Positions 6,501-64,000 of a stretch of DNA of 64,000 bases are shown here, in pieces. This DNA comes from Membranipora membranacea (lineage: Eukaryota > Bryozoa > Gymnolaemata > Cheilostomatida > Membraniporidae): contig OU612072.1 of NCBI GenBank assembly GCA_914767715.1, positions 22,630,001-22,694,000 of the forward strand. Reading direction: 5' to 3'. The translations under genes were made by a program, and so were the position numbers. Under the pieces are notes generated by a model. That model did no database searches. It worked only from the letters and a program-made list of their open reading frames with translations, and was not told the origin of the DNA. Every line of letters begins with the position of its first letter. The first letter of the stretch is position 1.

Positions 6501-7109
6501 AGCCCCCAGCACCCTCGGGTGTATACCTCTCCTGTGTACTTGTCTACTGACTGACTCATGGAAAGACATGTGACAGCATGGAAAGACATGCTGACAAGCT
6601 GGAAAGACAGCTAAACCTACTACAAGGGGTCCCAGCAATGGGCCATGTAAGGCCAATAACCCTAACACGTACGCTGTGTTTCATAGGGTGGCAATGGTGG
6701 ATTGGAATGTGCTGTGGGATGAGAGAACACAACTCCGAGTAGTGAATAGCGGGCTATCTAATTAGCGCCATCAACCCATTCTTTTTTGGGGATGGTGAGA
6801 TGGCGCAATCGGTTAGCGCGCTTGCTATTCACTGCCAGGCGATTAGTGCCGCAGGAGTTGTGGGTTCGAGTCCCACTGGGGGAGCTTTCATTGATGATTG
6901 TTCCAGCCCCCAGCACCCTCGGGTGTATACCTCTCCAAAGTTTGATGTCTGTTATATTATTGGTCACTTATCAAAAACATGACATTTCATTGGCTACTGA
7001 CAATTTAAACTTTGAGCAAATTGATTTAAGCAGGAGAGGATAATCCTGAGTTCGGTTTTTAGAGGGTTCGTAGTTCGTGAGTTCGCGGTTCGGTTTTTCG
7101 TACCTACCC
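3532..7109. mobile_element. Nested non-autonomous TIR DNA transposon (3.6 kb)
   Basis: About 58-bp terminal inverted repeats begin GGTAGGTACGAAAAACCGAAC and are themselves built from repeated aaaaaccgaac blocks. The element is flanked by a 9-bp direct repeat, CAGAATAAC (3523-3531 and 7110-7118). It interrupts the leader of the LTR element between primer binding site and gag. No transposase ORF is present. It carries unique AT-rich DNA (3600-5640) and a tandem SINE array (5648-6935). A 9-bp duplication with long TIRs is most like Mutator-type elements, but the superfamily cannot be fixed from the ends alone. Confidence 0.8.
5648..6935 (+). repeat. Tandem array of a 404-bp unit containing a tRNA-derived SINE
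   Basis: Units start at 5982, 6386 and 6790 (exact 404-bp period), preceded by a partial unit from 5648. The last unit stops at 6935. Each full unit has an A-box-like TGGCGCAATCGGTTAGCGC and a B-box GGTTCGAGTCC about 55 bases later, the pol III promoter of a tRNA-derived SINE. A tail with CCCAGCACCCTCGGGTGTAT follows. Units look virtually identical, so the amplification is recent. The ORFs of 104 and 63 codons repeated here are by-products of the repeat. Confidence 0.85.
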
Positions 7110-7369
7110 CAGAATAACACCCACCAGAACTCGATTCAGACCAGATAGATTTGTGGAATTTTTCAGAGGTCAGATTCTAGCAAATTAGTTGAATTTGCTC
7201 GGGTCACAAAACAAGCATCAGTCTCAGAATAAGAAAGTGGTGAGAGATTTGTTGAATCTCAGAAGCTCTCACAGAGTGCAGAAAGGAATTGTGTTACATT
7301 CCTAGCCAAAAGTAGTGAGAACAGTGTAACTGTATAAAAGTGAATTGTAGATTAGAATTATCAGCTAAA

Positions 7370-8146
7370 ATGGCTACCAGTGAAAGTAAACAAGAAAAGT
7401 TTGTGAAGACCATTGATTTAACAGCAAGCAATTTATCTGCAAAATGGAAAATTTTCAAAGAGCAGTTTGCCATCTATAAAGTAGTAAAGGGTATTGATGC
7501 TATGACAACAGAAGATGAAAAGATTTGTCACATGTTGGTAGTCATGGGAAGTGATGCTGTTCCGGTTTATAATCAGTTTGTATTTGACCAGAGCGTAGCT
7601 GCTAAGAAGAAAACTCTAGCAAATGTAATTAAGTTTTTTGACGAGTACTTTGAACCAGTAAAGAACGTGATTTATGAAAGACTAGTGTTCAACCAAATGG
7701 TACAAGATTCAAGCGAATCTATACACGCATTTGTCGTCCGTTTACAAACACAGAGTGAAAACTGTGAGTACGGTGTTATGAAACCAGAACTCGTCAGAGA
7801 TCGAATAGTGGTAGGAGTGAGAGATTCAGAGTTAAGGAAATATCTCATTGACACAGAAAACCTAACTCTTGAGTTATGCATACAAAAGACAAAACAGTTT
7901 ATCTCACACCAATCACAAGCAGAAAAGATGGGAGAGAACATAGCCTCAAATAAAGAAGAATCCAATAACATCGACACCCTATCAACTGACAAGAGAAGAC
8001 AGTGGCAGCAGAAAAATGATCTCGAGCTGAAAAGTCAATGCCAGAAATGTGGAAAATGGCGGCAGTTTGGTGGAAAATGTCCAGCAGAAAGTAGTAAATG
8101 TAACAAATGTAAAAAGATAGGACATTGGGCTTTTGCCAGCTGGTAA
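7370..8146 (+). CDS. gag: Retrotransposon gag polyprotein (3' truncated)
   Basis: The ORF is open from 7340, but the likely start is the ATG at 7370 (MATSESKQEKF). It has a capsid-like helical region of about 200 residues typical of Mag-type gag. A cysteine-rich nucleocapsid follows: CQKCGKWRQFGGKCP, then CNKCKKIGHW, where the final Cys of the second zinc knuckle is missing. The ORF stops abruptly at 8146, just where the deletion into the protease region occurs. The product would coat the RNA genome in virus-like particles. Confidence 0.85.
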   Translation: MATSESKQEKFVKTIDLTASNLSAKWKIFKEQFAIYKVVKGIDAMTTEDEKICHMLVVMGSDAVPVYNQFVFDQSVAAKKKTLANVIKFFDEYFEPVKNVIYERLVFNQMVQDSSESIHAFVVRLQTQSENCEYGVMKPELVRDRIVVGVRDSELRKYLIDTENLTLELCIQKTKQFISHQSQAEKMGENIASNKEESNNIDTLSTDKRRQWQQKNDLELKSQCQKCGKWRQFGGKCPAESSKCNKCKKIGHWAFASW

Positions 8147-8399
8147 AGAGTTATTGGGAGCTGGGAATGCAAAGCTGCGTACGGTAGGGAAAGCGCAAGT
8201 AGAACTATCATACTCAGACAGAGTGTATACTGATACAGTGTATGTGATAGAAGACCTTGTCACTCCGTTACTAGGCAAACCAGCTTTGTCGGGTTTACAA
8301 ATCATAACATTTGTGGGTGAAATAGTGTCAAAGCAAGAGTGGACTACAAAGTTTCCGAAGTTATTTACTGGGATCCATGGACACCGAAGTGAAAATTGA
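8147..8399 (+). pseudogene. Retrotransposon protease remnant, active site deleted
   Basis: In a different frame from gag, the sequence matches the C-terminal half of a retropepsin and its linker to RT (KELLGAGNAKL, VIEDLVTPLLGKPAL). The upstream segment with the catalytic Asp-Ser/Thr-Gly triad is absent: gag's last zinc knuckle runs straight into the middle of the protease. The frame then ends at 8399 while RT continues in another frame from about 8370, so there is also a frame break. This copy cannot process its own polyprotein. Confidence 0.75.
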
Positions 8400-11163
8400 A
8401 CTCAGAGATGGTGCAACTCCTTATTGTCAGTCTATCCCCAGAAGAGTAGCGGCTGCTAGAAGAAAACCAATGCTCGAAGAACTGAGACGAATGGAGAAAC
8501 TAGGGGTGATAAAGAGAGTTGAGGGCCCCACAGAGTGGTGTGCTCCATCGATTGTGGTCCCAAAGAAAAACAACAAAATCAGACTCTGTGTAGATTTCAC
8601 TCAACTAAATGAGGCAGTGAAACGATCGTATCACCCTCTTCCAGCCACGGATGAGTTGTTAGCCCAGCTGGGGGGGTCTAAAGTTTTCTCAAAACTCGAT
8701 GCCAACAGTGGTTATTGGCAGATGAAGCTGTCAAAAGAATCCCAAGCACTAACTACATTTATTACTCCTTTTGGAAGATACCTGTGTTGCAGGCTTCCAT
8801 TCGGAATATCGATAGCTCCTGAAATATTCTCACGTGAAATGCAGAGGATATTGGAGGGCATAGAAGGGATTGTTTGTCAAATGGATGACATCCTAATTCA
8901 TTCAGAAGATGAAGAGTCGCAGAAAGCTAAAATAGAAGAGGTGCTGAATAGACTGAGTAGGGCCGGGGTTACTCTGAATGAAGAAAAATGCGAGTTTTTT
9001 CAGAGCAGAATTACATTTCTAGGACATGTCATTTATGCTCAAGGCATTCATGCGGATCCAGAAAAGATAAGAGCAATTCAGGAGTTTCCTCCCCCGAAAA
9101 AGGTCAAAGATCTCAAAAGATTTTTTGGGATGGTGAACTATTTAGGTAAATTCTCTCCGAGTTTAGCAAGTGACTCAGTACAGCTCAGGCAGCTGCTGAA
9201 GAAAGAAAATAAAGACAACTGGACTTGGAATGGCGACATGGCTCTCGAATATGAGAAGATGAAACAAAATTTAGCTTCTGCACCGGTGCTGTCGCCATTC
9301 TCCCTTGAAGCAGACACTCTTTTATCGACAGATGCGTCCTCCTATGGATTGGGGGCTGCCTTATTTCAGAAAACAGAAGAGGGTCTCAAACCGATTGCTT
9401 ACGCATCGAGAGCTCTCAGTGAAACAGAACAAAGGTATGCTCAAATTGAAAAGGAGGCGCTGGCAATCTGTTGGGCTGCGGAAAAGTTTTATTACTATTT
9501 AGCAGGTAGAAAATTTCAAGTAGAGACAGACCACAAACCTCTTATCAGCATCCTATCTAAAATGGAATTGGCAAAGCTACCTATGCGGGTGCAGAGGTTC
9601 AGGCTTAGGATGATGAAATTCTGCTATTCCATAAGATATACTCCAGGGGAGAAGTTATTGATTGCCGATGCATTAAGCAGAGCACCCTGTCCAAAGAGTG
9701 ATACGGTTCAACTGGATGAACTAGATATATCGGAGATGGTAGAAGATCTACCGATGTCGGAGACTCGCAGAAGACAACTCCAGTTCTCTACACTCAATGA
9801 TACGGTTTGTCAGCAAATTAAGCGGTATATACAGTATGGTTGGCCTGAGTATAAGCAGTGTCCGCAGTTTGTTAAGAATATCTACACATTCAAGGAATGT
9901 CTAACAGAAGCGGGGGATCTTGTGTTTTATAACAACAGGGTGTTCATTCCGCTCTTAGAAAGGCAACAGGTACTGAAGGATATACACGCGGGACATCTGG
10001 GAGAATCAAAATGTTTGGAGAGAGCTAAAGATCTGGTATGGTGGCCTGGTCTAACTACAGAAATTAGAGAGCTAGTTAAAACATGTGCTACATGTTTGAA
10101 ATATCGATCTCAACCAAGAGAGCCTCTGGTATCCGTGCCTTTTCCTGAATGCCCGTGGTGGCAGATCGGAATGGATCTTTGTACAGTGGAGGAGAGGGGT
10201 AATGATTATCTAGTTATCATGGACTATTTCAGTCGATATCTGATTGCAGAGAAGCTTTCTGACACGACTGCAGAAACTGTGTGCCGCACAATAAAGAAGG
10301 TGTTCTCGCTGTTTGGAATTCCTAATTCCGTCATCAGTGATAACGGTCCTCAGTTTGTGTCTGAGAAATTTAAGCAATTAATGGACCAATGGAATATCTT
10401 ACACCGTACCAGTTCTCCTAAATATTCTCAATCAAATGGTGAAGCAGAGAGAGGGGTACAAACCTTCAAGAAGCTAATCAAGAAGAATGAGAATATAGAC
10501 CAAGCTCTTCTATGTTACAGAGATGCTCCGTTACAGAATGGGTACTCTCCTGCCCAGCTGCTGATGGGGCGAGGTTTAAACAGTATGGGTATTCTGGCGG
10601 AGAAACAGGTAAACCTGAAAGGACTCAAAGATTTTGAAGCCAGGTATCGAAACAAGCAGTCGGATCAGTACAACCGGAGATATAGAGTGAAGATCAGGAC
10701 AGAGGTTCAGGTTGGAGATAGAGTCACACTAAATGATCCAGGAGCTAAACCATGTTCGTCTACAGTAGTAGCCGTCTCAGGAAGAGAAGTGGCTCTTCAG
10801 AAGGAAAACGGTCAAATTCTTAGACGGAACAGACGTCAGATCGCGCCAGATATACCACATACAGCACTGCAATCACCAGAGAGCACAGAGTCTGAGGTAC
10901 CCCACCAGAAAGTGTTACCTCCTGTGTTGCCAGATGTACCCCATCAGGTTCTGTCATATGCAACTCCAGCAGTTAAACAGGAAGCTCTGTGTCCACAGCC
11001 CGACAGGAGTACAGGAACCTCGTTCTGTGAGGCAGTACCAGTGCCTTCAACGAAGAGGATAGAAGTCAGGCAGTCTCTAGATAGGACGCAGGCCCCACCA
11101 GAGACAAGGAGAACCACGAGATCGGGTAGATCTGTGAAACCTGTAAAAAGAATGAACCTGTAA
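8377..11163 (+). CDS. pol: Retrotransposon pol: reverse transcriptase, RNase H, integrase
   Basis: 928 codons. RT spans about residues 30-260, with the catalytic box as QMDD (168-171), a variant seen in Mag-type gypsy elements. RNase H begins at TDASSYGLGA (near 317). The integrase has an HHCC-like zinc region (HAGHLG...CATC) and a DDE core at D600, D655 and E691 with 35 residues between the last two. The C-terminal 150 residues are Pro/Ser/Arg-rich. The initiating Met is probably not the natural start, since normal pol is continuous with the protease. Confidence 0.95.
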   Translation: MDTEVKIELRDGATPYCQSIPRRVAAARRKPMLEELRRMEKLGVIKRVEGPTEWCAPSIVVPKKNNKIRLCVDFTQLNEAVKRSYHPLPATDELLAQLGGSKVFSKLDANSGYWQMKLSKESQALTTFITPFGRYLCCRLPFGISIAPEIFSREMQRILEGIEGIVCQMDDILIHSEDEESQKAKIEEVLNRLSRAGVTLNEEKCEFFQSRITFLGHVIYAQGIHADPEKIRAIQEFPPPKKVKDLKRFFGMVNYLGKFSPSLASDSVQLRQLLKKENKDNWTWNGDMALEYEKMKQNLASAPVLSPFSLEADTLLSTDASSYGLGAALFQKTEEGLKPIAYASRALSETEQRYAQIEKEALAICWAAEKFYYYLAGRKFQVETDHKPLISILSKMELAKLPMRVQRFRLRMMKFCYSIRYTPGEKLLIADALSRAPCPKSDTVQLDELDISEMVEDLPMSETRRRQLQFSTLNDTVCQQIKRYIQYGWPEYKQCPQFVKNIYTFKECLTEAGDLVFYNNRVFIPLLERQQVLKDIHAGHLGESKCLERAKDLVWWPGLTTEIRELVKTCATCLKYRSQPREPLVSVPFPECPWWQIGMDLCTVEERGNDYLVIMDYFSRYLIAEKLSDTTAETVCRTIKKVFSLFGIPNSVISDNGPQFVSEKFKQLMDQWNILHRTSSPKYSQSNGEAERGVQTFKKLIKKNENIDQALLCYRDAPLQNGYSPAQLLMGRGLNSMGILAEKQVNLKGLKDFEARYRNKQSDQYNRRYRVKIRTEVQVGDRVTLNDPGAKPCSSTVVAVSGREVALQKENGQILRRNRRQIAPDIPHTALQSPESTESEVPHQKVLPPVLPDVPHQVLSYATPAVKQEALCPQPDRSTGTSFCEAVPVPSTKRIEVRQSLDRTQAPPETRRTTRSGRSVKPVKRMNL

Positions 11164-12674: not shown

Positions 12675-15600
12675 ATGGTATGTGCTAGCAATTGCAATTT
12701 GATATAGCCCAATATAGAACCAGGCCTATGGAATTAATGCCTGATAGTCATGAGAATGAAATGGTCATGAAGAAATGTTTGAAAGAAATGGAGCAGTTTT
12801 TTTTATTTTTACTTGCCAAGTAATAACATCTTAATTAATTTATAAATAGATCTTCTCCCTGCAAATTTGTATAATAATCTTGTAGGGCAGTATGAATGGT
12901 TATTTGTATAATTCTGCCCTACCCATGTTAGGGTACTTGTAGGCATGGTGTCACTCAGCAATGACTGATTTAACTGTCACTTATGTGTGCATGATTTTCT
13001 ATTCAACCAAACTTTACCTAAGCTAAGCGCTGACTAACTGACTTGAGTGAGTAGCATGATCACAGACAGTAACCCTACTCTCAGTACAGACTAGCTAAAT
13101 AATAGCTCTCAATATTGATTGGCTCCTGTGAGCTTGTAAGCATTTATATTGTCGAGGCGTCTTGCATCAATCATACACTTTGCACATGAGCACCCAATCA
13201 ATTCAGGGCGGTAATCTTTGCACCTTAGCACTTGGATTTATCCAAATGTGAGTTCTCAGACTGAAGAGTTGCCCTGTTTGCACTGGTTAAACACTAACTT
13301 TATGTGCAAAATGTAAATGTAATAGGTCATTTGTATGGGCCCCTGGGACTTACATGTCTTTACTTTGCCAATGTCCACTATCAACCACCCAAAAAACACC
13401 AAACTTTGGTGTTTTTTGGGTGGTTGATAGTGGATATTGGCAAAGTAAAGACATGTAAGTCCCAGGGGCCCATGGTGAATTGGGCCAGTTTGTGACACTG
13501 TCGCTGCGATGCAGAGTGACTCGTATCGTAGAGTCGCTGCAGTGCATAGAAGCTTATATAGCCTCAGGGAGTATGCAGGCAAATTAACTGTCAGTACATC
13601 CTGGGCTGTGGTTGATGCAGGTTTTCTTGGTACATCATTGCCATTTAATAGGGTAGTTTTTTTTCAGGACAATCAGTTCAACATTACACACTGTCATTTC
13701 AGATTGATTTAGTATATGGATATGGTTTTCTTTTTGTTCATGACAGTGTTCTGGTCAATATGAGACTGATTAGTCAAAAAATCACTCACGTTTCATCATA
13801 ACTTGCCTGTACCATGAAAGTATGAAGTCATTGAGAATTATCGGGTAGTTTAGTACACCTGCATTCCTTTACCAGATCATATCATCAACAAAACAATTCT
13901 TATTTATGTCAGGTCTTCCTCACTTATAGCTTTAGTCATTCCTAAAATACACTATGCTATCTAGGCTTATAATTTGGACTGACCCTATTTCATCCTTGTA
14001 TGGCTGACATTAATATCACTGATTATGCTTGCTGTTTCAGATTAGTTTTATTCTGATACAGAACCGAGCTGGTAAGACACGTCTTGCTAAGTGGTATATG
14101 CACTTCGACGATGAGGAGAAACAAAAACTGATTGAAGAAGTCCACTCTGTTGTCACTGTGAGAGACGCCAAACACACAAACTTTGTAGAGGTAACTAACT
14201 CAGGTTCCTATTTAAACCTTCCATATATTATTATTGGGTTTTATTCAAGAAGTTTTTACGGAACATACCCGGTTTCAGTTTCTCACTGCCCTAAGTTTGT
14301 TTAAAGAGTTACAGGAGCTCTTCTATATTTTTTTAATCTTACCTCAGTTGGCCACCAGGCAAACATTTCAAGATCTATATGATATATGATTTCAGCTAAT
14401 TTGGAATCAATCAGTCATCTCATGATCACACCTGTTATAAATAAGTGCCTGCACTCCAGTCCCCAGTTGATAATTGCTCACAATTAACACTGTTCTCACT
14501 TTCTCTCAAACTCTGAAACAATCCTACCAACACAGAAAAGCATGTTCATATTAAAGTAAGAATCAGGTTTGAATCTTTCTAGAGTTCTCAGTGTTGTTTA
14601 AACCACTCTGTAAGGTCTATGAACTGTGGCCTATTTGCAACCTATTTTCACTCACTCAAAGTTGAGATGAGAAGGTACTGAAAGGTGCTTTCTTAACGAT
14701 AAAATATACAATATAGTCCCTTTTTAGTACCTTCTCATCTCAATTTTGTCTGAAAATCAGGTGAAAATGGGCACAGGTAATGAGATTTATAGTAGGTTTC
14801 TAAATTAGACTGAGAACTCTAGAATCATATAAAAAATATGTTACATTCACAGTCACTTTAACTAAGCCTAGTCTGATCCATCGTCATACTTATAATTTTA
14901 TCCATGCCAAACTACTAGCTCACTCTTTATCATGTTACTCATGTCATGTTTTGTAGTTCAGGAAATTTAAGATAGTATACCGACGATACGCCGGATTATT
15001 CTTCTGTGTATGCGTGGATACCGCCGACAACAGCTCTAGCTAATCTAAAAGCCATACATAACTTTGTCGAGGCGCTCAACGAATATTTCGACAATGTCTG
15101 CGAACTAGATCTAGTCTTCAACTTTTATAAGGTAAGTCTTTTATTGGGAGAGGAGTAATGTATTCGAAGGAGGAAAAGTTTCACACAGGCTTGAAATAGT
15201 CAAAATTATGGCTAGCTAACATTTAACTCAAATTGGTTTCTTTATGATATTATCTACCGCCAACTCCGTGCCTCGACCAAAGCTAGCAAGAATCGGTGCT
15301 AGTTAACATGAAGACACTCCTGTCTAATCGAAGCCAAATTAAACTTTAGCTCATATTCATTCCTCTGGGTATCATGTAACCATTGCCGTTGCCAAATTGT
15401 TTGAAGTCAGGAAAACTGAAAAACATTGTTGCTGTCATTTTACAGAAAAAAATGAGTTGCACCCCCTGATCCAATCCTATATATATTTACCTCACCATGA
15501 TAATATGAGATGGACCCATAGCTTTGAACATTAGGTGTAAAAAAAATTGACAATCAAAGACCATAACAAAAGAACATCCCTGCCTAACTATAGCATATCC

Positions 15601-37612: not shown

Positions 37613-39711
37613 ATGGTATGTGCTAGCAATTGCAATTTGATATAGCCCAATATAGAACAGGCCTATGGAATTAATGCCTGATAGACATCTTAATTAATTT
37701 ATAAATAGATTTGCTCCCTGCAAATTTGTATAATAATCTTGTAGGGCAGTATGAATGGTTATTTGTATAATTCTGCCCTACCCATGTTAGGGTACTTGTA
37801 AACATGATGGTGTCACTCAGCAGGTAGCCACACAATGACTGATTTAACTGTGTGTGTGCATGATTTTCTATTCAACCAAACTTTACCTAAGCTAAGCGCT
37901 GACTAACTGACTTGAGTGAGTAGCATGATCACAGACAGTAACCCTACTCTCAGTACAGACTAGCTAAATAATAGCTCTCAATATTGATGGGCTCCTGTGA
38001 GCTTGTAAGCATTTATATTGTCGAGGCGTCTTGCATCAATCATACACTTTGCGCATGAGCACCCGATCAATTCAGGGCGGTAATCTTTGCACCTTAGCAC
38101 TTGGATTTATCCATTTGTGAGTTCTCAGACTGAAGAGTTGCCCGTTCGCACTGGTTAAACAATAACTTTATGTGCAAAATGTAAATGTAATAGGTCAACT
38201 GGGCCAGTTTGTGACACTGTCGCTGCGATGCAGAATGACTCGTATCGTAGAGTCGCTGCAGTGCATAGAAGCTTATATAGCCTCAGGGAGTATGCAGGCA
38301 AATTAACTGTCAGTACATCCTGGGCTGTGGTTGACGCAGGTTTTCTTGGTACATCATTGCCATTTATTAGGGTAGTTTTTTTTCAGGTCAATCAGTTCAA
38401 CATTACACGCTGTCATTTCAGATTGATTTAGTATATGGATATGGTTTTCTTTTTGTTCATGACAGTGTTCTGGTCAATACGAGACTGATTAGTCAAAAAA
38501 TCACTCACGTTTCATCATAACTTGCCAGTACCATGAAAGTATGAAGTCATTTAGAATTATAGGGTAGTTTAGTACACCTGCATTCCTTTACCAGATCATA
38601 TCATCAACAAAACAATTATTATTTATGTCAGGTCTTCCTCACTTATAGCTTCAGTCATTCCTAAAATACACTATGCTATCTAGGCTTATTATTTGGACTG
38701 ACCCTATTTCATCCTTGTATGGCTGACATTAATATAACTGATTATGCTTGCTGTTTCAGATTAGGTTTATTCTGATACAGAACCGAGCTGGTAAGACACG
38801 TCTTGCTAAGTGGTATATGCACTTCGACGATGAGGAGAAACAAAAACTGATTGAAGAAGTTCACTCTGTTGTCACTGTGAGAGACGCCAAACACACAAAC
38901 TTTATAGAGGTAACTAACTCAGGTTCCTATTTAAACCTTCCATATATTATTATTGGGTTTTATTCAAGAAGTTCTTACGGAACATACCCGGTTTCAGTTT
39001 CTCACTGCCCTAAGTTTGTTTGAGTTACAGGAGCTCTAAAATATTTTTTTAATCTTACCTCAGTTGGCCACCAGACAAACATTTTAAGATCTCTATGATA
39101 AATGATTTCAGCTAAATTGGAATCAATCAGTCATCACACCTGTTATAAATAAGTGCCTGCACTCCAGTCCCCAGTTGATAATTGCTCACAATTAACACTG
39201 TTCTCACATTCTCTCAAACTCTGAAACAATCCTATCAACACAGAAAAGCATGTTCATATTAAAGTAAGAATCAGGTTTGAATCATTCTAGAGTTCTCAGT
39301 GTTGTTTAGACCACTCTGTAAGGTCAATGAACTGTGGCTTATTCGCAACCAATTTTCACTCACTCAAAGTTGAGATGAGAAGGTACTGAAAGGTGCTTTC
39401 TTAACGATAAAATATACAATATAGTACCTTTCTAGTACCTTCTCATCTCATTTTTGTCTGAAAATCAGGTGAAAATGGGCCATAGGTAATGAGCGTTATA
39501 GTAGGTTTCTAAATTAGACTGAGAACTCAAGAATCATATAAAAAATATGTTACATTCACAGTCACTTTAACTAAGCCTAGTCTGATCCATCGTCATACTT
39601 ATAATTTTATCCAAACCAAACTTCTAGCTCACTCTTTATCATGCTACTCATGTCATGTTTTGTAGTTCAGGAATTTTAAGATAGTATACTGACGATACGC
39701 CGGATTATTCC
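37613..39711 (+). pseudogene. AP2S1: AP2S1, truncated second copy
   Basis: The putative start exon (ATG 37613-37615), exon 2 (38760-38909) and the first 15 codons of exon 3 (from 39666) are present. Exon 2 is intact and keeps Arg3, which the longer copy has lost. Exon 3 has CGA changed to TGA (IVY then stop) and is cut off by the duplication boundary. Confidence 0.85.
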
Positions 39712-46315: not shown

Positions 46316-49247
46316 CTGAAACAAAGTAAGCTACATGATTAGCATCAATATATAGTTTGCAGACCAATGATGCCCTAATTTCTTAACCAAAAGGCATGTT
46401 TTGGGAGGAGGGGGGGATGAGATATTGCTGCGCACTTCCAGCTATTTTGCTGATCAGATTTTGAGAGGGCATGCAAAGTAAAATTCCTGCTGCATAACTT
46501 AGCTGTGTCCAATCAATAAGTATTAAAGGGTGCACAATAATATTTCAAGTTGGAGTAATCTCCCCTTAAATGGTGAGAGGACAACTCAGACACATCTCAC
46601 CTTGAGAAGCGTAACTGCATACAGCTGGTAGTATTGGAGTTAATGAGATTGCTAATAGTAAAATGTTTAGCTGGCCTGCGCTGAAAAAACCTGGGATAAT
46701 ACTTGGGTAGCTTATCTCACTTATCACTTGCCGAATCAACCGAGATTTGTAGCTATCATTTTGAGATTGCGTCCATCAATTCCCGACCCCTTAACCCAGT
46801 CAAGACATTGTTACTCCCAACAATTATTAGCAGGGACTTATTCTTTTAAATGATGTAATATCACTTTAAGCCCGTTACTATTTTTGTTTCTTCAGGTGGT
46901 GTATTTCACAGCCTTATTCCCATATTTGGTGCTTGTTATTCTGTTCTTCCGCGGAACCACTCTTCCGGGTGCCTCAAGAGGGATCTGGTTTTACATCACA
47001 CCACAATGGCACAAGCTGTCAGACGCTATGGTGGGTTTTACTTGATTTAATTATGATTTTTTTATGACCCCAACTTGCTTGTGCAGAATGAAAAATACAG
47101 ACAACCGGAATTTAAAGACCTGGAACCTGGAAGACATTCGACCTGGCCCATATCCAGTAAGATTTTCGAACTACCAGAAAAGCAGAGTTCCCTTTTTCGA
47201 TGGAAGGCAGCGCCACCATCTATATGCCGCAAAGATAAGACTAAGTCATAAGGCTATCCTGCAGGCAGAATGGTTGTCCCGTCTGACAAACATATTTTCA
47301 TTTACTCTAGGTTTGGCGAGATGATGCAATAAGTTATCTCCCCTATGTGTTATATCCTCAAAGAGTGGACAACTCACACAAAGCAAGATGAGCAAAACCA
47401 TAAAAATATCTTTTTCGAAAAATTACGCGAATATTACGAGCTGCATTAGCAATTCAAATTTGCCATAATTCATTATTTTGCAACACTGTCTTGATGAACA
47501 GAGGCGCTAGATTTGCCTCTGGAAGGTTTGAATTCTACAGGTTCGAGAGTCCCAAACCTATGATAGTTTAGTTATCTCTGGCCAGCCTCGTTTCAGAAAC
47601 AAAACTAACAATAATTCCAATACTTGATTTAATTAGCATAAATCAAAATAGTTGCCACCAACGACAATATTTACAAACACAATATAATTTGACCCTATTT
47701 TATTTGCAGGTGCCGGTCTAGCCTTTGTCATCTATCCCATGGCGGTACTCAACCTCCCTGGATCGCCCTTCTGGGCATTTCTGTTTTTCTTTATGCTGCT
47801 AACACTGGGACTGGATACTCAGTTTGCTTTGATTGAGACGGTCTGTACGACTATATTCGATGCTTTCCCCAACCTCATCGCTAAGAAGATGTGGGTCACT
47901 CTGGCGCTTTGTGTAGCTTTCTACTTCCCAGGTATGATGCAACAAGTAGGAATCTTGTACTATTAAATATTCCACACAAAAGGCAGTGAGCCATTTTTTG
48001 TCATTTGCAGCCAAGCATAGTTTGGTCTGGACTGTGTGGGATAAAACAAATTACATTTTGTTGCTAGGTTTGTATAGCAATGTGTGTCTGAGTGAACCAA
48101 TACATCTTTTAGGGAAAATCTGACTGATTTTCCCAAATCCTTATTCTATTTGAAATTTACCAATAATCTTACTAAACAAGTTTTTGAATAAGTGAGAAAA
48201 ATATTTCCTCCTTTTTTTATTATTTGAACACCAAAAACAGAAGCATTGTGGGTAAATTTAATCTTCGACTGTGAAACATATCAAAACAGGAAAAATCATG
48301 TCGCGGTAAATTTGCCATCCATCACACAGCTATTATGTTCATCAATTTTCTACGGATTAGAAGTCGTAACCCTCTTGGTACGTTTTCTGTCTTCCTATTT
48401 GTCCTCCAGCTTTTGCTGTAATTTATTCAACACAATATGAATAACATCCGACTATAAATATTGTATAATACTTGATCCCAGGTTTGATATACGTTACACA
48501 AGGAGGTAATTCTACATACTGAAGATGGTGGACAGTTACGCTTCTGGCTGGAACGTTATAATCATCTGCCTCACTGAAACTGCTGTAATCGCCTATCTGT
48601 ATGGTTATGATCGATTCGCTAAGGTTGGTATGGTTCGTAGTAAACAAACCTTGACTTGTCTGCATTTCGAGTTGCTCCCCCTCCACTGGGCATGCATGTC
48701 CAATGGAAGGGGAGCGACTGGAAGGCCGGCAAATTGAATCATACTTGTTTTAGGTTAGTAGACATAGTACACTTCTTAGAGCTACCGTTGAAGTCACCTC
48801 TATCATCACTTTTGTATCGATTCGCTAAGGTTGGTATGTACTGTAGACATAGGACCAGTGCTCTAAGTGGAAATCTTTCTTTGTGGGTACTCAACTCTCT
48901 GGCTCGACATCAAATTATGAAAATGTATTGGCATATTGAGTGCTGGCCTAGTGCGAAAAAGTACTAACTGGCGCTTTTGTCAAACTGGGATAAAGGCCTT
49001 TTTGTGTCCGAATTGCATTAATGATACAAAGGGAAATTTTTATTTAAACTTCAATTTTTAGCCATTTGTAATTTGAATTATGGTTCATTTTTTGTGAACA
49101 TAATAATATATGAAACACCCTGCAGAATCCAGAAGTGGTCATAACTCCATTCCTTTTGATTTCGCCAGTTAAGACTTTGTCGTGGTGGGCGAGCGAAATC
49201 GAAATGCAGAAATATGGATCTGCATCAGTATCATTGATCATTGATAT

Positions 49248-51910: not shown

Positions 51911-54900
51911 TTCTAATAATACATTACCTTCCTTTACAAGGTTTATGATTGGAAGGAAGCCGCCATTATTCTGGAAGTTTTGCATTATGGGTATTAGCCA
52001 AGTCACAATATCCGTTAGTAACTTATAAAATCTTCCTTAGCATGTCCTAGTCCCGATAATATAGCCTGGACTGTGTGTGTATAATAGTGACCATCCCCAA
52101 TATTCACACATGCTAACTTTGACATCAACTTTGTTAAAAAAATCTGTTTCTGCCTCATATTTTTGATGAGTTGAGATTCAATGAATACTTTAGTTATTGA
52201 ACTGTAAACATTCTGCATACCTTTGTAATTTCTAAAGAGTGTGTAAACTCCAGCTTATCTACCTAAATATTGATCCGTGTGCAGCTGTGCAATTAAACTA
52301 TTTTGTCCAACTCCTACCTACCATTGACTTGAAAACTTTGGACTCTAGATCCAGATCAAGTTGTCAAAGGGAGAACATGATACCAGTTACGCAATTTTTA
52401 TCTACAATCTCTGACCAACATCTTCTTCTCGTTTGCTCCTCTAGTTTGTGCTAATATTCGACTGGGCTAACTTCAAAACACTGAAATATGGAAACTATAA
52501 GTTCCCTATGTGGGCTCATGTAATAGGCTGGGGGATATCCATCTATGTGGTGGCAGCGATTCCAATCAAAGCCGCTGTCAATGTCGGGAGAACAAAAGGA
52601 GAGTCTCTGCTCGACCGCATCGTATGTATAGTAGAAGTTTTTCATATCTCTTTTCTTCTAATACAGAGAGAAAATGTGGGTTTAGTGAAGCATCGATTTA
52701 TTCTCATCTACATCAATCTTATATAATAGGAGAAAACTTCAACCCTAAATCGTCAATTAATATTGTGTAAAACAGGATGACACACACAGTATACCTTGTA
52801 CAGGATACATATTATGTCAGATTCATTTATGTAACCTGCCCAAGATTTTTTTAATATCCGGGTATATAGATTTAACTGAATTTTGATTTATGAAATTATT
52901 TAGTATAAGCGGACATTTTGCCAAGTCCTGATGATTAGAGAGTTAGAATATAACAAATTTACGATGAGAAAAACGGCGAAATTCACAACCCAATGGAAAT
53001 ATTTACTGGTAGGGTAATTTTTTCACAGGCATTAATAAAGATTCATGATTTTGTGAGCCTTGATACTGTTAAAATATTTTAACAAGAAAAGTTTTGCTAT
53101 TAAGTAAATAGCGCATTTTCCAAAATTGCAATTTATTATTTTTTCGATAGCTGTCAATCAAAATAATTATGGTCATGGCCCTGAAATCAAAACGCAAAAC
53201 TGATTATTGTAAAATTCTGAGAACTTGTTTGAATTACCATGCCTGGATATAATTTGTTGGTTATGCTGAAATTTTGGTTGCAGAAAAAGTGTGCAAGGCC
53301 AGCGTATGATTGGGGTCCAGCACTGCCCAAACATAGAATGTACATAGAATATGTACCAAACTGGCAGGTACACCCGATCGGGGACGCTGAAAGTCTAGGT
53401 TCTGAGGTGAGATGTCTCAGTTACACCCATTACTTTTATGATCAATTCCCCGCTCAATTTGGGTTCCCTGTTATAAATGTATTATATTTATAGAATTATC
53501 ACAAGAAGCCTAATGATGAAAGTCCATACTTGCAATGATATTATTATATATGGATCTATCAATATTAAATTGTGCAAACTAATAACAACCTTACAATCAT
53601 ATCCTTTATCTATATCAATACATTATTGAGGGTAAGCCTCTCACTTTTATCAGAATAGAAATAGTTATGCAATCATAAGCTGGTGATAGTAAGAAACATA
53701 ATATTATGTGAGTTGTTATCACTGCATGATACAAACATATACTTACACATATACTTACACATAACCTACACACTAGTTATGATAATCGAATCAGTCATAC
53801 AAACAAACTATAATCACCCGGTTATCTCAACATCCCAAGACCTGAGGGCTATGAAATTACCATCTACTTTGTAATAACACTTATGGTAATAACGACATGT
53901 TGTCAAGGAAAGATCAATTACCAAAACATGTTTTGTCATTACAGGTGATTGCGCAACGTGACTATGATAAGCGCATAGCAGTGGAATCAAATAAAGTCAG
54001 CCCCACCCAACCTGCACAGCCGGACCAAGGAGGCCACTCTGAACGTAATCCGGACACACAAAACCAGTGAAAACAGTGACACATGAAGTCTACATAATAA
54101 TGTGCAACACCTCAACTTTTGCGGTGATACGCCCAAAGTTCCTTATTTAAAACATTCGACATAATTACTGACGATGTGTTCAATTTGTTAACCCGGTGTT
54201 GTACATATTTGTGGCACAGTGCTTAGAGCTAAATACATACCATTATAAGGTATCATGACGCTGCATGATTTTATTTCTTTCTCACTGTAGCTGAGGAGCA
54301 TCAGTATTTTTGCAGGTTGAATTTGCTTTAATATAGGTGTGATGTTCGGGATTTGTGGTTTATATTAATGAGAAATAAAATGACCTACAAAATAATGAAT
54401 ATGCTTGTGAGTGACTTAGGGTTGCTCTCTTATTAAGAATGTTCCCGTTTGTGGTTTTGTGTCTTATGATGAAGTTCTTGGATGCCAGTGTGACAAAATG
54501 TTCCCTGCTACATACCCGAGCAAATCAAATAAGGAACTGTTCCAAAGTCTCATTTTCGAATATAGGTTATTAACTAAAAATAGCACCACCGTGGTAATGA
54601 TAACCTCTCAATAAACTTATCAAGGTTTTAAGCTAAAAAGACTCATTATAAAAATTTGACAAAGTTGTTGGTTCAAGTTGTCATAACCTGCATAACTTCT
54701 CAATCTATGACTCAAGACTGCACTTCATCGAAGTTTCAAATACGTATCCACCAAGAAATAATTAACCTAACTAGCAAAGAGTCCGTTATGATATTGGCTG
54801 TTTTCAGACTTCAAAGGCAGCTGTATTGTTTTGGTAAGCAAAGAATCACAATTTTCACTTTTCTATCTTGCTTTGTGACAATTTTTGAGCACCACATAAA

Positions 54901-58374: not shown

Positions 58375-61300
58375 TTACTTAGTTATTAGAAAATGGGGAA
58401 AAACAAAAGACACATGTTGTTGGCGTGTGGGATATGATTTATAAACTTCTACAAACATTGAAGAACCTGACTGACCTTGAAACACCACCTCACTCTTAGC
58501 AGGATTCGGTGATACAGGATTGACCAGCTCATCTGGATGAGTAGTTCTCATATTAACTCCTGGTGATAGATAGAGCTTCCTATCATTAGTGAATGTACTG
58601 ATGGTGACAGGAAGCTGACGTTCAGGACTCCCTTCTCTTGGTGCCGAGTTTCTCACAACTGATTGGATCTAAACAATAAGGAGAATTAAACTGATTGACT
58701 GGTTCAGATTAATATCAGGCATTAGACACCAGCAGCAGGGAGTCCTGCTGACATTCCCTTGTCCTTTTTTTTCAAAAATGCAGCAATGGTAATATTTTGA
58801 TTATTTCAATAAGTTCAAAGAGAGGAGCATGATGGGTATCGTCTATATGTCTTATGTCAAAGATTGAAATACTTTACAAAATAGAGCAGTGTCTGTCAAA
58901 AGTGTATTAGACACCAGCAGGAATCAGTCTATCTGAAATCCCCTTGCCCTGGTTTTTCCATGATTTAATTACTTTTGATCTGGTTCAAAAAGAGGATCAA
59001 GATGGTTAACCTAAATTTGAGACCATGCCTTATTTTGACGATGGAAAAACTTTACAATAAGATATAACTTCAGAATATAAAGTAAGCGTTAGTTGAAGAT
59101 TAAATTCTATGTATTGATATGTTTATCTTTTGTAAAGCTATCAATATGAGAGTTATAATCTGTTTTGTATATCACTGTAAATTTAATGACCTTTGAAAAA
59201 CATGAGCAGCTGATTTTTTACCATATTACTTTACATTGAAGTGTAAATCAAATTATTCAGTGGGTAAAATCTAGTGAGTCAAATCAAGTGAGTCAAATTT
59301 AGTCGATGAGTCATCAGAGTTTGGTGAAGCACTTACCAGTTTACTGAGTTCTTCGACATGTTTACTTCCGGCCTGTTGATAGAATGTTGCTACGAAAGCT
59401 CTGATGAACACTGAACCGTAATTTTCATCTCTGAAGGCGGCATACTCTGGGCAAAGGAAAAAAGAGAAAGATTAAAAATATTCACTGAAATTATTGATTA
59501 AAAAGAATTGATGAAAACGCTGACTCAATATAATTGGCCTAATAAGAAACTTTTCAAAAATCTCTCAATACCTATTATTGGGGAAATGGCATGCTTATTT
59601 ATAGTAGTAATTTCATCCCCATTCTAAATAAAGGGTAGCGATCAGAAAGCAGAATTTATAGAAAATCTGATGATGCTATGCAGTTATGTATCGGCTCACC
59701 TTTTTAGAGGTATACACCCGAGGGTGCTGGGGGCTGGAACAATCAACAATGAAAGCTCCCACTGGGGGAGCTTTCATTGTTGATTGTGCCAGTCCCCAGC
59801 ACCCTCGGGTGTATACCTCTCCTAATTTCATCCCCATTCTAAATAAAGGGTAGCGATCAGAAAGCAGAATTTATAGAAAATCTGATGATGCTATGCAGTT
59901 ATGTATCGGCTCAGCTTTTGAGTGTTTGAGTTTATGGTTATATAACACAAGTATGAGCCACATAAATAAACAGTTTATCGCTGTTATTCATACCAAACTA
60001 ATTTCTCAAGCTGACGATGGACAGTAAGGTATTGACATCGCATTGGTATTTCTGTTGGATGCAATACCAACATAATTGCTGCACAAATACAATTTCTTAT
60101 CACCTGGGAAACTTGGATAGAAGACAATCAGGTCATCCATACATAAGTGGCTATCCTCTCTCAGTATGTCTCTAGGATTGGTAGGAACAGGATCAGCTGC
60201 CATGTCTTGAGGTTGTTGTACTGAAAATAGGGAAAAATAGCGGCTTAGTGAGAAATCATTTCAGAGTAGGAAGAAGAAAACAATTTAGATTAATTGCATA
60301 ATTTTGTTGTTAACAGAACAAATGTCTGACAATAAGAGACATCTGAAGTAAAGAAAGTGTGAGAACCATAACCCATTGTGAATAGCAGGAGGGCAGAGCT
60401 GGATGGATAATTTTCAACAGTGAGATTTATGATGAAATAAATGTCAGTGGTATGTTCGATATTTGATAAGATGTTAGCATCGTAATCCTTCATTCATCAC
60501 ACGTAATATTAAAATGGCAAAAATTTTCATTTATGTGTCATGAAGATCATAAATGGCTCAAAAAGTTTGCTAATCCTGGATTTTGTTTCACTTTTTTCAA
60601 AACCCAGTTAAAAAAGATTAGTCTTTCAGGTTTTTTAACTGAAGTTGATCACTTACTTCGTCTTCTCTGGGTTGCTGATCCTTCACTCAGTGTAACAACA
60701 GGATCCATTCTCATGATGTTAGCTGAAGGGAGTAGAGTGAGCATATAATAAATCATTATTATGCACAAAAGAGAATCTATTGCAAAGGAGTTGTGCTCTT
60801 TAAATAGAGATTTGAAATAGGGATTTATATGGATCAGTATTCAATTAAGATGGTTAGCTAGGGCTGCAAGTGGTATTCCACACCAGTATTTCAGTATTTA
60901 CTTGTACAGAGATAATAAATAAGAAAACGACCTCCTGAACATGATTGTAGTACAATCATCTTTGGTTTTCCTCTCATAGCTTGAAAGTTCTGAGGTGAGA
61001 GAAGTCTGTAGATATCCACCAATCTGATCATCTCGTTACCAACAGAGATAGTACCACTTCCTCCATGACTCATCAGCACCAGTACAAACATTCCTAGATT
61101 AGCATGTACAGATGTACGAGTTCTTCTATCCACATACTGAGTCTCACTGTGGATTGTCTTTATCAGCTCCTTCAGAAAAGAAAGTTAGTAAGATTCGATC
61201 GGAAGTAACGTTGATCATCAGGTATTTTTCAAATTTCAGCAATCGTATGATTTTTAACGGCATAACCATCTAAGAATGTCTAACAAGAGAGGCTCAAAGC

Positions 61301-63961
61301 ATGAAATATGAAAGCCAAATATAAACAATGGTATGAGTACCTTTGCATGCCATTCTTTGTCTTCAGACAAATCACTTATGACAAAACCGAATCGCTCTAA
61401 CATCCTCTTTATGTTAGCATAGTCATTCTGAGAACCTTCTCGATCTGTTTTATTGTTGATTATCAGAGCTCTTCCTCGTGTCGCAGTCATCACATAAACC
61501 TGCAAGTAAAGGCAACAAATAGATAACTGCAACTTATGTTACTACCACTAGATTTTGAATAAAGAATTCATTGCATGCAACTGATCACTCTATGCGTGGT
61601 AAAGGCAAGTGCACATAAACGTATTTGCAGTCTTATTGAGATACTTTAATTGACGTCAATCCTGAGAAGAACGATGGTTCAATAATATGTGTTTATTAAT
61701 CAATCCTCATCAAAATCTTTGATATTTATACACCCCACATAAATTAAAGGGACATATATCTTAAAAGGAAACATATTTCACCTCCAACAAATATTTTTTT
61801 AAACAAAAAGGAGCTAGGTGTCAAATACAAAACATTTCCTGCATCATACCAAAATGATTTTCTTTATTTTGATAAATATCTGGTATTTTCCTTGAATTCT
61901 AGCTGTTAATTACCTTGTCCATTGGGGATGCTCTGTACAATGATGTTTGAAAGACAGGATGCATATCGATGTCCTTTTCTCTCTCAGAAACAATCTGTGT
62001 GATTGCTGTCACCTCATTCAGCCCCTTCTTATTGATATAGTGTGTGAGTAATCTGATCCCCTCCTCTCCTGGGTAAGTACCTAGAATACACATCAGGTCA
62101 TTAATCACTACCTCTATTTTTTGTATCAAGATGACAAACTACTGCAGACAAGGTAAGTACTGAGGATATGTCCAAAACATGAATTTAGTGAATTAGAAAA
62201 GTGAGTGCTAGTTGTACACAGATATCCAACAAAGATGAGTGTTGTTCAAACGAAGAAGCTTTGCAAAATAATGATGAACTCACATGGTACTCTGAGCAAA
62301 GCTGGTATATCCGTTTCATCGCCACATTCAGCAATCTCTGTAGTGAGTCTTTGTGGATGAGCCGTTACCGCCTGGAACTCTAACAGTGCTGGATTTGGCC
62401 TACCAAGAATGAGACAGTGGAGGCAAGGAATGTCATAATCTATCTTTATGGCAGGCCATGTTGATTTTGCTTTCCCAGATAACACTTTGAGGAGGGTGGA
62501 GAACTTTGCCCAACATTCAGATATAGTGGTTGCACATCCGTCAACTCTGATGATTGCCCTTTGCGAATCTCTCTCATGTATGAAATGAACATCAAACTGC
62601 TCCTTCTTCTCATTGCCAGATCTGGTTGGTGCTTGCAACTTTGCAGCTGCTCCATTCCCATAGGGGAAAATTTGATAGCTTTCATCCATATTTTCGAGAA
62701 ATGAAACTGTTAACTGATGAAATGCATAGTCAGGCGCCTTCAATCCGATAAAGTTCATTGATGCATATAGCTGAATCTCAGCTCTATGATGAGAAAATGA
62801 ATGTTCAGGCATGAAGTATGGCATCAGGTAGCATTCATCCTGATTATTGATAACTGTTGGGCCAAACAGAAGTTTGAATTTTACCAAAAGAGCAATAGCA
62901 ATTTCAGAAGGTATTTTGGAGGGTAGGTCAGAAATGCGGGAATGAAGGTCAGCTTTGCTCATCATACCATTTCTTTGATAGCTGCTGGGTCCTGAAGTCA
63001 CATTTCCATCTGCTGATTGTTGTATGACAATTTCTGGAATCATGGTGTGACCATACAATGATCCTATGAGCTCTGTTAAAACTGGTATTTTATGGAACAC
63101 AGTATTTGCCAGGCTAGGGGTAGAGGAATCTGGGTACCACAATATCTGACCAGATCGCTTCATGAAGTCAAAAACAGTCCGAGGGTGCTTCAGAGAAGGA
63201 GAAATCAGGTCATGTTTGAGATAGCTGTCATTATTCTTGATGAAGGGAGAAAGCCAAATACTGGGAATGGAACATTTTGAACCCTGTACTCTGTTGTAGA
63301 GGGTTCTCTCTAGCCTCTTGAATACTGTGGAATAGACTTTGTCATCTTGAGAAAAGCCTACTGAGAACAAATTCTTCTTGCTGAACACAGATGAAACATG
63401 ATCCCCGTCAGAATGAACAGCAAGCCTTTCTATTTGACTGTTTTCATTTAGAAAGTCATCAGTCAAATCTTGTAGAGTGCGAATGAAGTCACCAGCTATT
63501 TTTTCATACAGGTCTAACTTAGTTCTATATTCATCATGGTGGGTGAGAACTACGAGGGGCTCTTGGATCTTTTGAACTGCTGTCCCAAGGTGTGCGACCC
63601 AATTGAAAGCGACTTCCCTTGTGGCTTCACGTGGTCCTCGCTTTTTGGCTATTTCTTCGAATTCTGACATATTCACCACGACTATTGGTATGCAGTCTTC
63701 ACGCATTGTCAGGTGGTAGCCGTGATGGTACATTTCATCACCACCAAAGTCAATAACCTCGACATCACTTTCCTCTGAATCAGGGCCTTGAATCTGTACC
63801 TTCTCAAAACCGAAAACCTTTGTTTTTTCAACGCTTGCATCATGTGGACTTCGAGCTTCGAACTTATGCTTCATGACACTTAGAAGAGAAGACTTCCCTG
63901 CCTCTTTTCTACCAATGAGGACTATAGGTGATAGAGAGATGACTTCTTTTCCACTTTCCAT
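58375..63961 (-). CDS. Roc-COR GTPase fused to a caspase domain (ROCO-caspase)
   Basis: Eight exons with fully consistent phases: 63961-62284, 62080-61914, 61499-61341, 61169-60932, 60722-60657, 60220-60104, 59446-59337 and 58668-58375, encoding about 942 residues. The Roc domain is near residues 10-190, with P-loop GRKEAGKSS, DFGGDE and THHDEY. COR is about 230-545 (SGQILWYPD; LLVKFKLLFGPT with YLMPYFMPE; IPCLHCLI). A linker of about 70 residues leads to the caspase p20: RGRALIINN, R-EGSQND, His703 in MSHGGSG and Cys745 in QSCSGG. The p10 has DLIVFYPSFP, YAAFRDENYGS and the terminal strand LPVTISTF. Both catalytic residues and the Arg residues for Asp binding are kept. An acceptor-like ctacacag just before the Met suggests more protein upstream, beyond the window. 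The last exon may instead splice at 58476 (GTCAGT). Confidence 0.85.
59608..59913. repeat. Palindrome of SINE tail flanked by 91-bp direct repeats
   Basis: Two inverted copies of the tail of the tandem SINE (the part with CCCAGCACCCTCGGGTGTAT) meet at actg, arms 59706-59760 and 59765-59820. Identical 91-bp direct repeats (taatttcatccccattct ... atcggctca) flank it at 59608-59698 and 59823-59913. It lies in the intron between the last two p20/p10 exons of the ROCO-caspase gene. Confidence 0.85.
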
Positions 63962-64000
63962 GTCTGTGTAGTAGTGTTTTATGTCGCTCCAACCTCCTTC

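What the first reader, a model, noticed from the sequence alone, without database searches (positions are those of the whole stretch)
58375..63961. A ROCO GTPase joined directly to a complete caspase domain
Seen: one reading frame carried over eight exons, with every intron phase matching, runs from a Roc P-loop through a COR domain into caspase p20 and p10. Known: Roc-COR proteins usually end in kinase, death or no further domain, and caspases usually carry CARD or death-effector prodomains. I know of no described Roc-COR-caspase family. Inference: the GTPase/dimerisation module could act as the activation platform for the protease in the same chain, bypassing adaptor proteins. That would be a self-contained death or immunity switch.
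Basis: partly seen in the sequence, partly recalled or inferred. Interest (0 to 1): 0.88.

Follow-up and report, generated by a model that had tools for sequence, protein, structure and literature searches.

The report
LRR-Roc-COR GTPase fused to caspase
A sea-mat (bryozoan) gene joins a repeat-type sensor, a LRRK2-like GTPase switch and a complete caspase in what looks like one protein, and it belongs to a large family of such genes in that genome, which suggests a ready-made cell-death or immune receptor that needs no adaptor.

The parts
62284..64000 (-). Exon 1 (open at the window edge; continues to about 64.2 kb with LRR codons): Roc GTPase and COR
63890..63913 (-). P-loop (G1) GRKEAGKS
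   Evidence: read from sequence; columns G30, A34 and K36 invariant in the 8 rows of alignment A2
63737..63751 (-). G3/switch II DFGGD
   Evidence: DFGG invariant in 8 of 8 rows of A2
63533..63544 (-). G4 motif THHD
   Evidence: T153, H154, D156 invariant in 8 of 8 rows of A2; THxD as the Roc G4 motif is recalled
62357..63280 (-). COR region (approximate), ending in a CLHC motif
   Evidence: fold match; hhalign to two bacterial-looking Roc-COR proteins into COR-A, probability 99.5
61914..62080 (-). Exon 2: linker between COR and caspase
   Evidence: splice sites, phase 1 to phase 0; same boundaries in L012 and L014
61341..61499 (-). Exon 3: start of caspase p20 (RGRALIINN...DREGSQNDY)
   Evidence: Pfam C14; boundaries conserved in L012, L014
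60932..61169 (-). Exon 4: rest of p20 with catalytic His (SHG, codon 61065-61067) and Cys (QSCSG, codon 60939-60941)
   Evidence: Pfam C14; motifs
60657..60722 (-). Exon 5: p20-p10 linker
   Evidence: match in L012
60104..60220 (-). Exon 6: linker and start of p10
   Evidence: matches in L011, L012, L013
59337..59446 (-). Exon 7: p10 with the substrate-pocket Arg region (AAFRDENYGSVFI)
   Evidence: Pfam C14, E 0.0086 alone and within the spliced match; dN/dS 0.08-0.10 against L011, L013; the Arg role is recalled from caspase-3
58375..58668 (-). Exon 8: end of p10 (KLYLSPG) and C-terminal tail to the stop
   Evidence: alignment to the caspase-4/-11 C-terminus

Best explanation
This is one member of a large, tandemly duplicated gene family of the bryozoan Membranipora membranacea that encodes intracellular LRR-Roc-COR-caspase proteins. 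Shown: the exon structure, the Roc-COR fold, a caspase with its His-Cys pair, LRR codons directly before Roc, the family and its fixed order, and purifying selection on both halves. Inferred: the LRRs bind a ligand (likely microbial or modified-self); this changes the nucleotide state and oligomeric state of Roc-COR; the attached caspase domains are thereby brought together, dimerise, cut the p20-p10 linker and cleave substrates after Asp, giving cell death or inflammation. It would work like an NLR or Apaf-1 platform plus its caspase in a single chain, with Roc-COR in place of NACHT/NB-ARC.
Against: No RNA or protein evidence. The architecture was not seen in another species: the caspase half found no relative among 2272 candidates, and relatives P0001-P0014 (unnamed contigs, taxon unknown) are ORFs that reach no further than the COR exon, so what follows is unseen. 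66 of 157 ROCO loci have no caspase match in the capped list; only two of these were inspected (L028, L032, both with diverged caspase exons). 42 of 133 merged caspase loci have no ROCO ORF in my list, so free-standing caspases probably exist too. The LRR selection test rests on few changes (p 0.03 and 0.24 for the two pairs singly) and leaves out L012, which has a one-codon deletion there. L013 has a changed P-loop (ARKS), so not all copies need bind GTP. L015 has EACSG in place of QACSG. Exon 2 shows no purifying selection against L012 and L014 (ratios 1.36 and 0.8, few sites).
Confidence: 0.66

Rival explanations
1. Two adjacent genes: an LRR-Roc-COR gene followed by a separate caspase gene, duplicated together as a unit and merely co-regulated.
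For: No transcript available; in-frame ATG codons exist in exons 2 and 3 from which a separate caspase could start (sequence).
Against: The COR exon ends in a phase-1 donor at the homologous place in 13 of 13 loci; exon 2 begins with a phase-1 acceptor, conserved in L012 and L014; the order does not reverse in 91 pairs; intron 1 of this gene is 203 bases, little room for a promoter.
Confidence: 0.06
2. One protein, but its job is developmental or housekeeping cell death (for example the regular polypide regression of bryozoans), with Roc-COR tuning the caspase and the LRRs binding internal ligands.
For: Bryozoans degenerate and regrow polypides (recalled); catalytic residues are kept.
Against: 157 clustered ROCO loci, variable LRR number and dN above dS in the LRR part look like a recognition family, not a housekeeping gene.
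Confidence: 0.15
3. The fusion acts mainly as a decoy or inhibitor, or as a GTPase scaffold with a mostly inactive caspase fold.
For: Some members have diverged caspase halves (L028: 17.3 and 23.5 bits), this copy has QSCSG in place of QACxG and L015 has EACSG.
Against: His and Cys are kept in 13 of 13 copies with that exon in view; purifying selection on p20 and p10 exons.
Confidence: 0.1

Closest known systems
ROCO proteins of the LRR-Roc-COR group (C. tepidum Roco, MFHAS1/MASL1, brown-algal ROCOs)
   Different: No C-terminal caspase is described for them in the passages; [quoted passage not shown]
ROCO proteins with other death or immune domains (DAPK1; Trichoplax ROCOs with CARD or death domains; Aplysia ROCO-TIR and ROCO-MyD88-like)
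   Same: Roc-COR tied to death/immune domains in one chain (PMC6337361, PMC4104024, PMC9334734, passages read)
   Different: The passages list adaptor, kinase or TIR domains, not a caspase
Amphioxus LRR-caspase and TNFR-caspase hybrid proteins
   Same: Receptor part joined directly to a caspase as a signalling shortcut (PMC2575513, passages read)
   Different: The words GTPase and Roc do not occur in the main text; whether these proteins hold an unnoticed Roc-COR was not tested
NLR inflammasome or Apaf-1 apoptosome with caspase-1 or -9
   Same: Works like: LRR or repeat sensor, nucleotide switch, caspase activation by proximity (recalled)
   Different: Uses NACHT/NB-ARC and separate caspases recruited through CARD/PYD (recalled)

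Membership tests
ROCO family | Roc GTPase domain with P-loop, G3 and G4 | tested here: met
   Pfam Roc over cut-off; motif columns invariant in A2, apart from the AGK to ARK change in L013
ROCO family | COR domain directly after Roc | tested here: met
   Fold match over model residues 1-561 to Roc-COR structures; hhalign 99.5% over LRR, Roc and part of COR-A. Against: Pfam COR-A/COR-B only below cut-off in relatives and not reported for this copy
ROCO family | GTP binding and hydrolysis | not testable with these tools
   needs biochemistry
Caspase family (C14A) | p20 and p10 caspase fold with His-Cys pair | tested here: met
   Pfam C14 99.3 bits, positions 1-229 of 233; SHG and QSC; caspase-4/-11 alignment through the C-terminus. 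No structure was predicted for this half
Caspase family (C14A) | Asp specificity (two pocket Arg) | tested here: inconclusive
   Arg present at the matching places by eye (DREGSQ in exon 3; AFRDE in exon 7, aligned to SYRDK of caspase-4); activity not tested
NLR family | NACHT/NB-ARC NTPase | tested here: not met
   Pfam scan of the spliced protein at E up to 10 reports no NACHT or NB-ARC; the NTPase is Roc-COR by fold
LRR protein | leucine-rich repeats | tested here: met
   LRR codons in exon 1 beyond the window and in upstream stretches, judged by motif; Pfam LRR models match in relatives, mostly below cut-off

The most novel reading that the evidence does not exclude
Bryozoans use a very large, fast-evolving repertoire (over 150 genes) of one-chain receptor-proteases, LRR-Roc-COR-caspase, as their main intracellular immune receptors, in place of NLR-adaptor-caspase cascades, with LRR arrays diversified by tandem exon duplication and positive selection.
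Probability: 0.42. Interest if true: 0.92.

Novelty: new variant of a known kind. Interest (0 to 1): 0.8.

Why it matters
It would be, to my knowledge, the first described ROCO GTPase with a protease as built-in output, so it makes a long-open question directly testable: what Roc-COR nucleotide state and dimerisation do to an attached effector, which has been hard to settle for LRRK2 and its kinase. It also suggests that animals evolved NLR-like receptors a second time on a different NTPase, in parallel with the LRR-Roc-COR families of brown algae, and it gives a compact adaptor-free death switch.

Tried and rejected
Rejected: two-gene reading (conserved donor, fixed order); assembly artefact (91 paired loci on eight chromosomes); chance splicing (phases, conserved boundaries, purifying selection). 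Tried without result: Pfam COR on this copy; caspase-half protein search (none of 2272 candidates); whole-protein search (one hit among 6982 candidates); first structure model with two sequences (pLDDT 37, discarded); viral-contig scan with A2 (one 33% match over query residues 1-108, L027, not pursued). phmmer of the exon-1 protein against PDB sequences gave 4wnr (an archaeal Roco, E 0.0025) and a chance-level match. Not answered although retried: the genome search with the window exon, with PF16095 and with an L024 query. The amphioxus LRR-caspases were not checked for Roc-COR. No other bryozoan genome was found to be held here (the tool says G000 has no relatives).

Rows dropped before counts. 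In the family count I kept 67 of the 148 Roc matches (open frame 371 aa or more) and dropped the other 81 (shorter frames), taken as ordinary small GTPases or split exons; L016-L023, fetched, are of that kind and were not inspected. Without this step, 34 of 148 had a caspase downstream within 10 kb and none the other way. Searches scored only 71 of 243 and 74 of 237 candidates. In the dN/dS table one exon-7 match in L012 lies inside its exon 1 and was set aside as spurious. In the Mantel test 3 of 9 loci dropped out because a motif search missed their p20 exon, and two of the six left (window, L012) are close copies. Fisher counts were rounded to whole changes.

Full report
The gene. The minus strand from the window end to 58375 holds eight exons with GT-AG junctions and matching phases. 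Spliced, they give 955 aa from the window edge to the stop. Pfam finds a caspase over profile positions 1-229 of 233, E 3.6e-28, and a Roc domain just above its cut-off. The caspase half aligns with caspase-4 and caspase-11 through the C-terminal end of p10. It keeps His in SHG and Cys in QSCSG.

The organism and the missing 5' end. The window lies on contig C8 of a 339-Mb genome in 18 contigs. The contig lengths 41,072,641 (C1), 29,963,023 (C5) and 24,422,204 (C10) equal the longest scaffold, N50 and N90 printed for Membranipora membranacea in PMC10290214 (passages; contig lengths). The paper gives 339,374,674 bp in 21 scaffolds, the held copy 339,339,785, so a few small scaffolds differ. Beyond the window, exon 1 continues into LRR codons. 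Two further LRR stretches on the same strand, at about 69.6-69.9 and 72.6-72.8 kb, sit in a 3.1-kb tandem repeat of 98.8% identity; that they belong to this gene is inferred. The protein is therefore LRR-Roc-COR-caspase; its start was not mapped.

A family. Pfam caspase gives 145 matches in this genome and Pfam Roc 148, both lists capped by the tool. With these alone, 34 Roc matches have a caspase match within 10 kb downstream on the same strand, and none in reverse order or on the opposite strand. Two searches with ROCO exons gave 71 and 74 matches, all at E below 1e-165. Together with 67 long-frame Roc matches and five C8 loci this makes 157 distinct ROCO loci. Of these, 91 have a caspase match downstream on the same strand within 8 kb (median 1.46 kb), 0 upstream, 0 opposite. 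Counting from the other side, 91 of 133 merged caspase loci have a ROCO exon upstream and 42 do not. Of the 66 ROCO loci without a caspase match, two were inspected (L028, L032); both have diverged caspase exons (Pfam matches for L028). The other 64 are open.

Thirteen fetched loci contain a ROCO exon (window, L012-L015, L024-L026, L028-L032). All 13 show caspase sequence downstream, though several stretches end before p10 and L014 ends in its first p20 exon. At the 3' end of the COR exon all 13 have a phase-1 donor T|GT at the homologous place, 11 of them GT(A/G)AG and two GTAGGT. This is the best evidence available here that transcripts run on from COR into the caspase exons. In the 13 copies with the catalytic exon in view (the same list with L011 in place of L014) His and Cys are kept; L015 has EACSG in place of QACSG.

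Selection. Against L013 and L015, dN/dS is 0.36 and 0.33 in exon 1; against L011, L013 and L015 it is 0.08-0.33 in exons 4, 7 and 8 where it could be computed (exon 3 was saturated for these). No stop codons interrupt the aligned pieces. Against the closer L012 and L014 exon 1 gives 0.52 and 0.43, and the linker exon 2 gives 1.36 and 0.80 on few sites. In L013 and L015 the Roc-COR exon is much closer to this gene (dS about 0.4) than exon 4 (dS about 1.0), which hints at gene conversion or module exchange. The 71 LRR codons before Roc show dN above dS in 5 of 6 pairs among window, L013, L014 and L015. For two non-overlapping pairs the nonsynonymous:synonymous counts are 31:5 against 101:58 in Roc-COR (pooled Fisher p 0.0097; singly 0.03 and 0.24). 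Members on C11 and C1 carry about 49-51 and 35 LRR units in the ROCO exon.

How it most likely works. Shown: order, Roc-COR fold, caspase homology and catalytic residues, family, selection. Inferred from families: CtRoco and LRRK2 change oligomeric state with nucleotide, and initiator caspases are activated by proximity (recalled). So an LRR-triggered change in Roc-COR would bring caspase domains together, and the p20-p10 linker with its several Asp residues (exons 5-6) would be cut. I put this receptor-protease reading at 0.66, developmental death at 0.15, an inactive or inhibitory role at 0.10 and two separate genes at 0.06.

What is known. A ROCO review lists LRR-Roc-COR, kinase-bearing and DAPK groups (PMC6337361; caspase, peptidase and protease do not occur in its main text). 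Trichoplax has ROCOs with CARD and death domains (PMC4104024), Aplysia has ROCO-TIR proteins (PMC9334734), brown algae have LRR-ROC-COR genes with shuffled LRR exons proposed as immune receptors (PMC11378527), and amphioxus has LRR-caspase and TNFR-caspase hybrids (PMC2575513). All were seen as passages only. None of nine literature searches listed a ROCO-caspase fusion; each showed at most 20 of up to thousands of papers, and subscription journals are mostly not covered. A bryozoan genome paper (PMC13326412) does not use the words caspase, ROCO or immun- in its main text.

Limits. No transcript, no second species with both halves, no biochemistry. The counts come from capped searches and are best taken as lower bounds.

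Noticed in passing
window 7319-11163 +: Ty3/gypsy-type retrotransposon pol ORF of 945 aa with RT, RNase H and integrase, preceded by a 275-aa ORF without Pfam match.
   Followed up: no
window 14023-14301 + and 38742-39023 +: Nearly identical ORF occurs twice 24.7 kb apart; the first copy matches the clathrin adaptor small chain, pointing to a local duplication.
   Followed up: no
window 47688-47963 + and 52445-52723 +: Exons of a sodium:neurotransmitter symporter (SLC6) gene.
   Followed up: no
window 5522-6680 -: Roughly 400-base direct repeats that read as nearly the same open frame three times.
   Followed up: no
L013 5222-6907 -: A paralog with ARKS in place of AGKS in the P-loop, while its caspase exons stay under purifying selection: possibly a GTP-independent copy.
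   Followed up: partly
L031 3-5327 + and L032 3568-8001 -: Single exons with about 50 and 35 similar LRRs directly before Roc-COR.
   Followed up: partly
L028 2739-3774 +; L031 6058-7249 +; L032 1883-3092 -: A second caspase subfamily on C3/C11/C1 with diverged motifs (SHGTAG/SHGIAG, QACQ); the p20 exons of L028 and L031 fall below Pfam's cut-off or are unmatched.
   Followed up: partly
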